In this document: piece after piece, positions 11,448 to 12,768 of the stretch | Position numbering within the stretch: the first letter of the stretch is position 1 | Layout of the letters: each line of letters begins with the position of its first letter | Source of the DNA: Vibrio sp. CB1-14 | Lineage (GTDB): Bacteria > Pseudomonadota > Gammaproteobacteria > Enterobacterales > Vibrionaceae | Direction: 5' to 3' | Assembly (NCBI RefSeq): GCF_040412085.2 | Contig: NZ_CP115920.1 | Span: forward strand, 620,001-684,000 | DNA: 64,000 nt | The notes under the pieces: generated by a model | Databases searched by the model: none | The model's input: only the letters and a program-made list of their open reading frames with translations | What the model was told of the DNA's origin: nothing | Translations under genes and position numbers: made by a program

Positions 11448-12768
11448 TTAGTTCGCTTTCTTAAGGCCAGCATTGATATCAATGATATCTTGCTCACTCA
11501 AGGTGCCAACTGATTGACGTAGGTTTAGAACACTCACAATGTAGTCGTAACGAGCATCAGACAGGTTGCTTTCTGCATCGTACAGCGCCTGAGTTGCTTC
11601 TAGTACGTCAACGATAGTACGCGTACCCACATCAAAACCTGCTTTGGTTGCTTCCAGTGCCGATTCAGCAGAAATTACTGTCTGCTCAAATGCACGGATT
11701 GCACCGATGGAAGAGTTGATGTTGTTGTTATTCGCACGAACATTACGAACTACCGAGCGGTAAGTTTGCTCTAGCTGTTCGCTTGACTCAACGTACGCAA
11801 ACTCTGCCTGGCGGGTTTGCGAGGTAATGTTACCACCTGTATATAGCGGCACAGACAGGTTGATACCGGCGTTGAACACATTTGTTGTATCATTTCCGCC
11901 TAAAACACGAGTGTTGCTTGAGTTACGCTCATTGTCATAACCGTAACCACCATCAAGTGTAAGCTTAGGTAAATGACCAGAGCTTGCTAACGTGATGTTG
12001 TCTTTCGCAATATCTTGACCGATACGTGCTGAGAGTAAATCCAAGTTCTTCGACTGTGCTTCTTCTAGGAAGAAGGTAACGTTTTGCTCTGGGCGAGCCG
12101 CTGCGAAACGATCCGTATCAAGGACATCGATATTGTTGTGCTCTTGACCTGTGATTTCACGTAGTGCTTCGTATTGGTTCAGTAGGTTGTTTTCTGCAAC
12201 CACTTCATCGGCAAGTACGCGGTCATACTGAGCTTGCGCATCGTGTACGTCAGTAATTGCTGATAGACCTACTTCAAAACGCTGTTTAGTCTGCTCTAGC
12301 TGGCGAGCTACTGCTGCCTTGTTGGCGCGAACCGATTCAAGAGCATCTTTAGAACGCAGCACTTCAAAGTATGCTTGCGCGGTACGAAGGATTAGGGATT
12401 GTTGCGCCGCTGCATATTGAGAGTCCGCTTGACGTGCTGTTTTCTCAGCCGTGTCTAGCGTGATCCAACTTGTACGGTTGTACAGCTCTTGAGAAAAGCC
12501 AACGCCAGCTGTTAGGTTATCACTGTCTCCACCTGTGTAGTCCGCACGAGTAAAGTCATACCCAGCGGTCAAGTTGATTTGTGGTAGAAGTGTTGCACGA
12601 GCAGAATTGATCGCTTCAAATGCACGATCACGCTGAGCCGCTGCACGCAGCAACTGAGGATCGTTTTGCTTTGCTTGATCGTAGATCTCGGTTAGGGAGT
12701 CGGCCCATGCCGCTGCACTTACGCTTCCTAATGCAGCTGTAATAAAGAGTGGAAGCAGTTTTTTTCAT
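11448..12768 (-). CDS. tolC: Outer membrane efflux channel TolC, with a one-base frameshift in the signal peptide
   Basis: TolC is the trimeric outer-membrane exit duct for RND, MFS and type I export systems. The body (residues MLRAAAQRDRAF onward, 401 codons, 11448-12653) is intact, with both tandem TolC repeats: RFEVGLSAITDVHDAQAQYD in the first, FDVGTRTIVDVLEATQALYD in the second. Upstream, the same frame encodes a normal signal peptide and mature start (LLPLFITAALGSVSAAAWADS). The only plausible start, ATG at 12768 in the context ATGAAAAAAACTG, is one base out of phase because the A run is 7 long (12759-12765) instead of 6. With one A removed the product would be 439 residues starting MKKLLPLF, as expected for TolC. 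In the window sequence the in-frame codon before the run is TGA. Assembly error, true mutation or slippage are all possible. Confidence 0.9.

What the first reader, a model, noticed from the sequence alone, without database searches (positions are those of the whole stretch)
12759..12768. tolC is out of frame with its own start codon by one base in an A7 run
The frame of the intact 401-codon TolC body continues upstream through a perfect signal peptide and mature start (LLPLFITAALGSVSAAAWADS), but the only plausible ATG (12768) is separated from it by seven A residues where six would keep the frame. Removing one A gives a 439-residue protein starting MKKLLPLF. In the sequence given, the codon before that frame is TGA and no other ATG, GTG or TTG start exists until after the signal peptide. 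Options are an assembly error in a homopolymer, a real loss of function affecting all TolC-dependent export, or expression through slippage or phase variation in the run.
Basis: partly seen in the sequence, partly recalled or inferred. Interest (0 to 1): 0.7.

Follow-up and report, generated by a model that had tools for sequence, protein, structure and literature searches.

The report
tolC frame break: likely sequencing error
The published genome of a marine Vibrio shows its TolC export-channel gene broken at its very start, but the same kind of break sits in a gene the cell cannot live without, so this is most likely a run-length error in the sequence and not biology.

Summary
On the minus strand the only plausible tolC start (ATG, 12768-12766) is followed by seven A (12765-12759), and the 401-codon TolC body (12653-11448) lies in another frame. 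Contig lengths identify the genome as Vibrio chaetopteri CB1-14T = KMM 8419. Its methods section describes a nanopore library assembled with Flye and mentions no short reads. Of 80 relatives examined, 79 have an in-frame start; none shares this break. Against V. mediterranei, 4 of 467 conserved ORFs in three sampled regions are frame-split, each at a run of A: tolC, hrpB, an aromatic aminotransferase and alaS. alaS has no second copy and its class of enzyme is essential, so at least that break must be a sequence error. mutS and mutL are open. Best reading: a homopolymer-length error, with an intact TolC in the living cell (0.93). Against it: the split rate is no higher than in V. mediterranei (3 of 477 in the reverse test), so the case rests on kind, alaS and provenance. 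Reads, or sister strain KMM 8420, would decide; neither is held here.

The parts
12766..12768 (-). Only plausible start codon (ATG) of tolC, preceded by AGGA
   Evidence: relatives' starts at the matching place
12759..12765 (-). Run of seven A at which start and body part company
12654..12758 (-). Signal-peptide region and mature N terminus in the body's frame, without ATG, GTG or TTG
11448..12653 (-). TolC body, 401 codons plus stop
   Evidence: NF007002 561.7 bits against a cut-off of 495; Pfam OEP
12628..12768 (-). Short frame read from the ATG as it stands, 46 residues and stop

Best explanation
The A run at the start of tolC has the wrong length in the deposited assembly. Long-read base calling errs at homopolymers, and in this genome some such errors stayed in the final sequence and split conserved genes. 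In the living strain tolC most likely has an ordinary in-frame start and makes a normal outer-membrane channel. Shown: the frame mismatch, its absence from the relatives examined, the published nanopore/Flye method, and three further breaks at A runs, one of them in alaS. Inferred: that the tolC break belongs to the same class of error as the alaS break.
For: 79 of 80 relatives have the start in frame and none has this break. The contig lengths 3,497,892 and 1,804,652 and the total of 5,543,559 equal those of V. chaetopteri CB1-14T (papers). Section 5.5 of PMC11641403 describes a nanopore SQK-RAD002 library, MinION and Flye 2.9 with default parameters, without short reads or polishing. Homopolymer-length errors are the commonest residual error of long-read-only bacterial assemblies (PMC8812927, passages). 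In three regions 4 of 467 conserved V. mediterranei ORFs are frame-split in this genome, each at a run of A. One is alaS, found only as two pieces in two frames; aminoacyl-tRNA synthetases are essential enzymes (PMC6209979, passages). The tolC body shows strong purifying selection: dN/dS 0.020, 0.024 and 0.047 against three relatives, no stops.
Against: Four breaks in 498,057 nt are few for an unpolished early nanopore assembly (my expectation, from no call), so polishing may have been done and not described. The reverse test found 3 of 477 ORFs of this genome split in the V. mediterranei draft after tRNA places were set aside, so a raised rate is not shown. Table 1 of PMC11945961 leaves 90 genes that are neither coding nor rRNA/tRNA here against 180 in the hybrid-assembled sister (my subtraction), so this record does not look worse. 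Real frameshifts also favour homopolymers. No read was seen.
Confidence: 0.93

Rival explanations
1. A real, very recent frameshift mutation inactivates tolC in this isolate, natural or arisen in culture, so that TolC-dependent export is lost.
For: The sequence as deposited says so. By rate the assembly is not clearly worse than the V. mediterranei draft. An intact body with dN/dS 0.02-0.05 would also fit a very recent loss.
Against: The same kind of break is found in alaS, which cannot be lost. mutS and mutL are open and over their cut-offs, so no mutator background is seen. Only distant TolC-family members, 21-25% identical, could stand in. V. cholerae tolC is needed for bile resistance (title of a cited paper, seen in a reference list).
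Confidence: 0.05
2. The run is a real contingency or slippage site: DNA or RNA length changes in it switch TolC on in part of the cells or transcripts.
For: Runs of A and T are where transcription insertions prevail in E. coli and Buchnera (PMC5574713, passages), and the run lies right behind the start codon. PMC1088944 notes that some bacteria may slip on runs shorter than nine (passages).
Against: In a large proportion of 108 genomes selection against slippage-prone runs becomes evident at nine bases (PMC1088944 abstract); this run has seven. Insertion frequency rises exponentially with run length, and the authors saw no case in which a transcription error restored a frame (PMC5574713, passages). 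No out-of-frame start layout is shared by the 80 relatives examined.
Confidence: 0.02

Closest known systems
Residual homopolymer-length errors of long-read-only bacterial assemblies (PMC8812927, passages)
   Same: Single-run length change that shifts a conserved gene out of frame, several unrelated genes hit, nanopore/Flye method
   Different: Fewer than I would expect of an unpolished early nanopore assembly; reads not seen
Disrupted ORFs rescued by transcriptional slippage at runs of nine A or T (PMC1088944, passages)
   Same: An A run where two frames of one gene meet
   Different: Seven A, not nine; layout not conserved in relatives
Intact Vibrio TolC genes, for example V. maritimus (L005, L007) and V. 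mediterranei (L012)
   Same: Same neighbourhood and body, 89-98% protein identity
   Different: Start in frame with the body there

Membership tests
TolC outer membrane channel protein (NF007002) | Score over the curated cut-off | tested here: met
   561.7 bits against 495, positions 41-441 of 460
TolC outer membrane channel protein (NF007002) | Start codon and signal peptide in frame with the body | tested here: not met
   Not in the deposited sequence; met in 79 of 80 relatives
Homopolymer-length error of an assembly | Break at a homopolymer and absent from relatives | tested here: met
Homopolymer-length error of an assembly | Same kind of break in genes that must be intact | tested here: met
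   alaS split at a run of seven A, no second copy
Homopolymer-length error of an assembly | Error-prone read type, no short reads | tested here: met
   Method as published (section 5.5 of PMC11641403); unreported polishing not excluded
Homopolymer-length error of an assembly | More frame breaks than in a comparison genome | tested here: not met
   4 of 467 against 3 of 477 in the reverse direction, tRNA places set aside
Homopolymer-length error of an assembly | Accurate reads disagree with the assembly | not testable with these tools
   No reads held
Slippage or phase-variable run | Run long enough, layout conserved | tested here: not met
   Seven A; not conserved in 80 relatives; nine is the usual length (PMC1088944 abstract)
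Mutator strain | Broken mismatch-repair gene | tested here: not met
   mutS and mutL each open and over the cut-off; mutH and uvrD not tested

The most novel reading that the evidence does not exclude
The A-run changes in tolC, alaS, hrpB and the aminotransferase are real and tolerated, because this strain's RNA polymerase or ribosome corrects short A runs at a useful rate; V. chaetopteri would then keep even an essential gene split in its DNA.
Probability: 0.01. Interest if true: 0.75.

Novelty: not a real feature. Interest (0 to 1): 0.07.

Why it matters
Mainly a caution. The type-strain genome of V. chaetopteri holds at least one A-run length error in an essential gene (alaS) and probably others, tolC among them. 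Pseudogene or loss-of-export calls made from this record should not be trusted without reads.

Tried and rejected
References that did not serve. The nearest drafts, V. maritimus JCM 19240 (G061) and CAIM 1455 (G063), carry many indels: 74 split pairs among 154 ORFs of this genome with a hit in G061, and 24 split pairs among 208 ORFs of G061 with a hit in this genome. I put most of the 24 down to errors in G061 but did not check them one by one. Of 38 indels not divisible by three that both drafts show against this genome, the tolC and hrpB places are two. V. sp. 10N.286.49.B1 (G065) gave 0 splits among 48 of 208 ORFs with a hit; its contig holds a tolC match, so the scan missed the tolC break there. 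It is weak near gene ends, and four breaks is a lower bound.

Set aside before counting: two of six split queries, lying on tRNA-Cys and tRNA-Arg genes. Reverse direction, ORFs of this genome split in G066: 2 of 174, 2 of 92 and 1 of 211; one of the 92 and the one of the 211 lie on tRNA genes, leaving 3 of 477. I saw two of these three in alignment; their gaps are not in A runs. The third was not looked at. For the aminotransferase the DNA alignment returned nothing; its break is placed by protein matches and frames only.

Other ideas: mutator (mutS and mutL open); a later start (first in frame is TTG at 12653, past the signal peptide); a second TolC (three distant family members); an RNA element (Rfam, 0 matches at gathering score in the window). 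Paper searches; I claim no absence from print. Whether KMM 8419 tolerates bile was not found in PMC11945961 ('bile' and 'TCBS' 0 hits); its text gives the same three resistances for KMM 8419 and KMM 8420 (section 3.4), results for the other drugs were not seen.

Full report
What is in the sequence. On the minus strand the window reads AGGACAA, ATG (12768-12766), seven A (12765-12759) and then the signal-peptide region of a TolC. The 401-codon body, 12653-11448, scores 561.7 bits against the NCBIfam TolC equivalog NF007002 (cut-off 495) and matches Pfam OEP. It lies in an open frame of 438 codons that begins after a TGA overlapping the ATG; its first ATG, GTG or TTG is the TTG at 12653, past the signal peptide. 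Read from the ATG as it stands, translation ends after 46 residues.

Relatives. A scan of one genome per species gave 295 places that encode a relative; the best 80 were kept and all 80 were examined. In 79 a start of the form M-[KRN]-K-[LI] is in frame with the body. The exception, V. hannami (L033), has a start in frame with its signal peptide but changes frame further downstream, so it does not share this break. In the protein collection the best match is 97% identical; of the 120 listed (of 6210), 119 are 435-455 residues long and one is 336 (lengths read by eye). In the 100 bases before the ATG the window differs from V. maritimus (two strains) and V. variabilis by one three-base gap. The body differs from those three by 9, 22 and 12 nonsynonymous and 104, 110 and 112 synonymous changes in the order L005, L007, L006, without stops: dN/dS 0.020, 0.047 and 0.024 by simple counting. 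The gene was under strong purifying selection until very recently, or still is.

Which genome. The window is 620001-684000 of contig 1 of a three-contig genome of 5,543,559 bases; contigs 1 and 2 have 3,497,892 and 1,804,652 bases, which leaves 241,015. These are the replicon lengths of Vibrio chaetopteri CB1-14T = KMM 8419, a marine species from a polychaete (PMC11945961 abstract; PMC11641403 passages). Section 5.5 of PMC11641403, read whole, names a rapid nanopore kit, MinION and Flye 2.9 with default parameters; short reads and polishing are not mentioned. The sister strain KMM 8420 was assembled from MiSeq and MinION reads (section 2.4 of PMC11945961). Long-read-only bacterial assemblies usually keep errors, most often in homopolymer length (PMC8812927, passages).

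Is the break alone? I asked, in three regions, which conserved ORFs of V. mediterranei (G066; at least 80 aa, at least 70% identity) jump frame in this genome: 172 ORFs around the window, 86 on chromosome 2 and 209 around mutS, together 467 ORFs and 498,057 nt. Six were split; two of these lie on tRNA genes and were set aside. The four left are tolC, the helicase HrpB near its C terminus (C1:687056), an aromatic amino acid transaminase (C2, about 1658666) and alanine--tRNA ligase (C1, about 3238640) (families). Each breaks at a run of A: seven, six, five and seven bases in this genome. alaS weighs most. It is present only as two pieces in two frames, model positions 1-148 and 146-847; the other two matches are weak and below the cut-off. 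Aminoacyl-tRNA synthetases are essential enzymes (PMC6209979, passages; that alaS is among them is also my own knowledge). So at least one A-run break in this record must be an error, and tolC shows the same signature.

What speaks against. Four breaks in half a megabase are fewer than I would expect of an unpolished early nanopore assembly (recalled, no call), so the record may have been polished in a way not described. In the reverse direction 3 of 477 ORFs of this genome are split in the V. mediterranei draft once tRNA places are set aside, so a raised rate is not shown. Published gene counts leave 90 genes here, and 180 in the hybrid-assembled sister, that are neither coding nor rRNA or tRNA (my subtraction from Table 1). 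Real frameshifts also favour homopolymers. The case rests on the kind of break, on alaS and on the published method.

Rivals. A real recent loss would need tolC to be the exception in a class that must contain errors; no mutator background is seen (mutS and mutL open; mutH and uvrD not tested), and only three distant family members, 21-25% identical, could stand in. Slippage is unlikely at seven bases: selection against slippage-prone runs becomes evident at nine in a large proportion of genomes (PMC1088944 abstract), although the same paper allows shorter runs in some bacteria. Insertions rise exponentially with run length, and no frame-restoring transcription error was seen by the authors (PMC5574713, passages). 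No conserved switch appears in the 80 relatives.

Verdict. As biology it is ordinary; as a warning about this reference genome it is useful.

Noticed in passing
L225:4537-7120 (G000:C1 about 3236537-3239120): alaS of this genome is split into two frames at a run of seven A; no second alaS.
   Followed up: yes
L123:8685-11102 (G000:C1:684685-687102): HrpB helicase loses its proper C terminus at a run of six A, about 3 kb beyond the window's end.
   Followed up: partly
L207:15262-16475 (G000:C2 about 1658262-1659475): Aromatic amino acid transaminase present as two pieces in two frames near a run of five A.
   Followed up: partly
L033, about 1320-1530: V. hannami tolC changes frame near codon 40, at another place than the window's; its cause was not examined.
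   Followed up: partly
G061 and G063 (V. maritimus drafts): Both drafts carry many frame-shifting indels against this genome (4151 coding of 5523 genes for CAIM 1455 in Table 1), so they are poor references.
   Followed up: partly
G000, whole genome: The abstract of PMC11945961 gives 5,591,686 bp, but its own replicon lengths add up to 5,543,559, the size held here.
   Followed up: no
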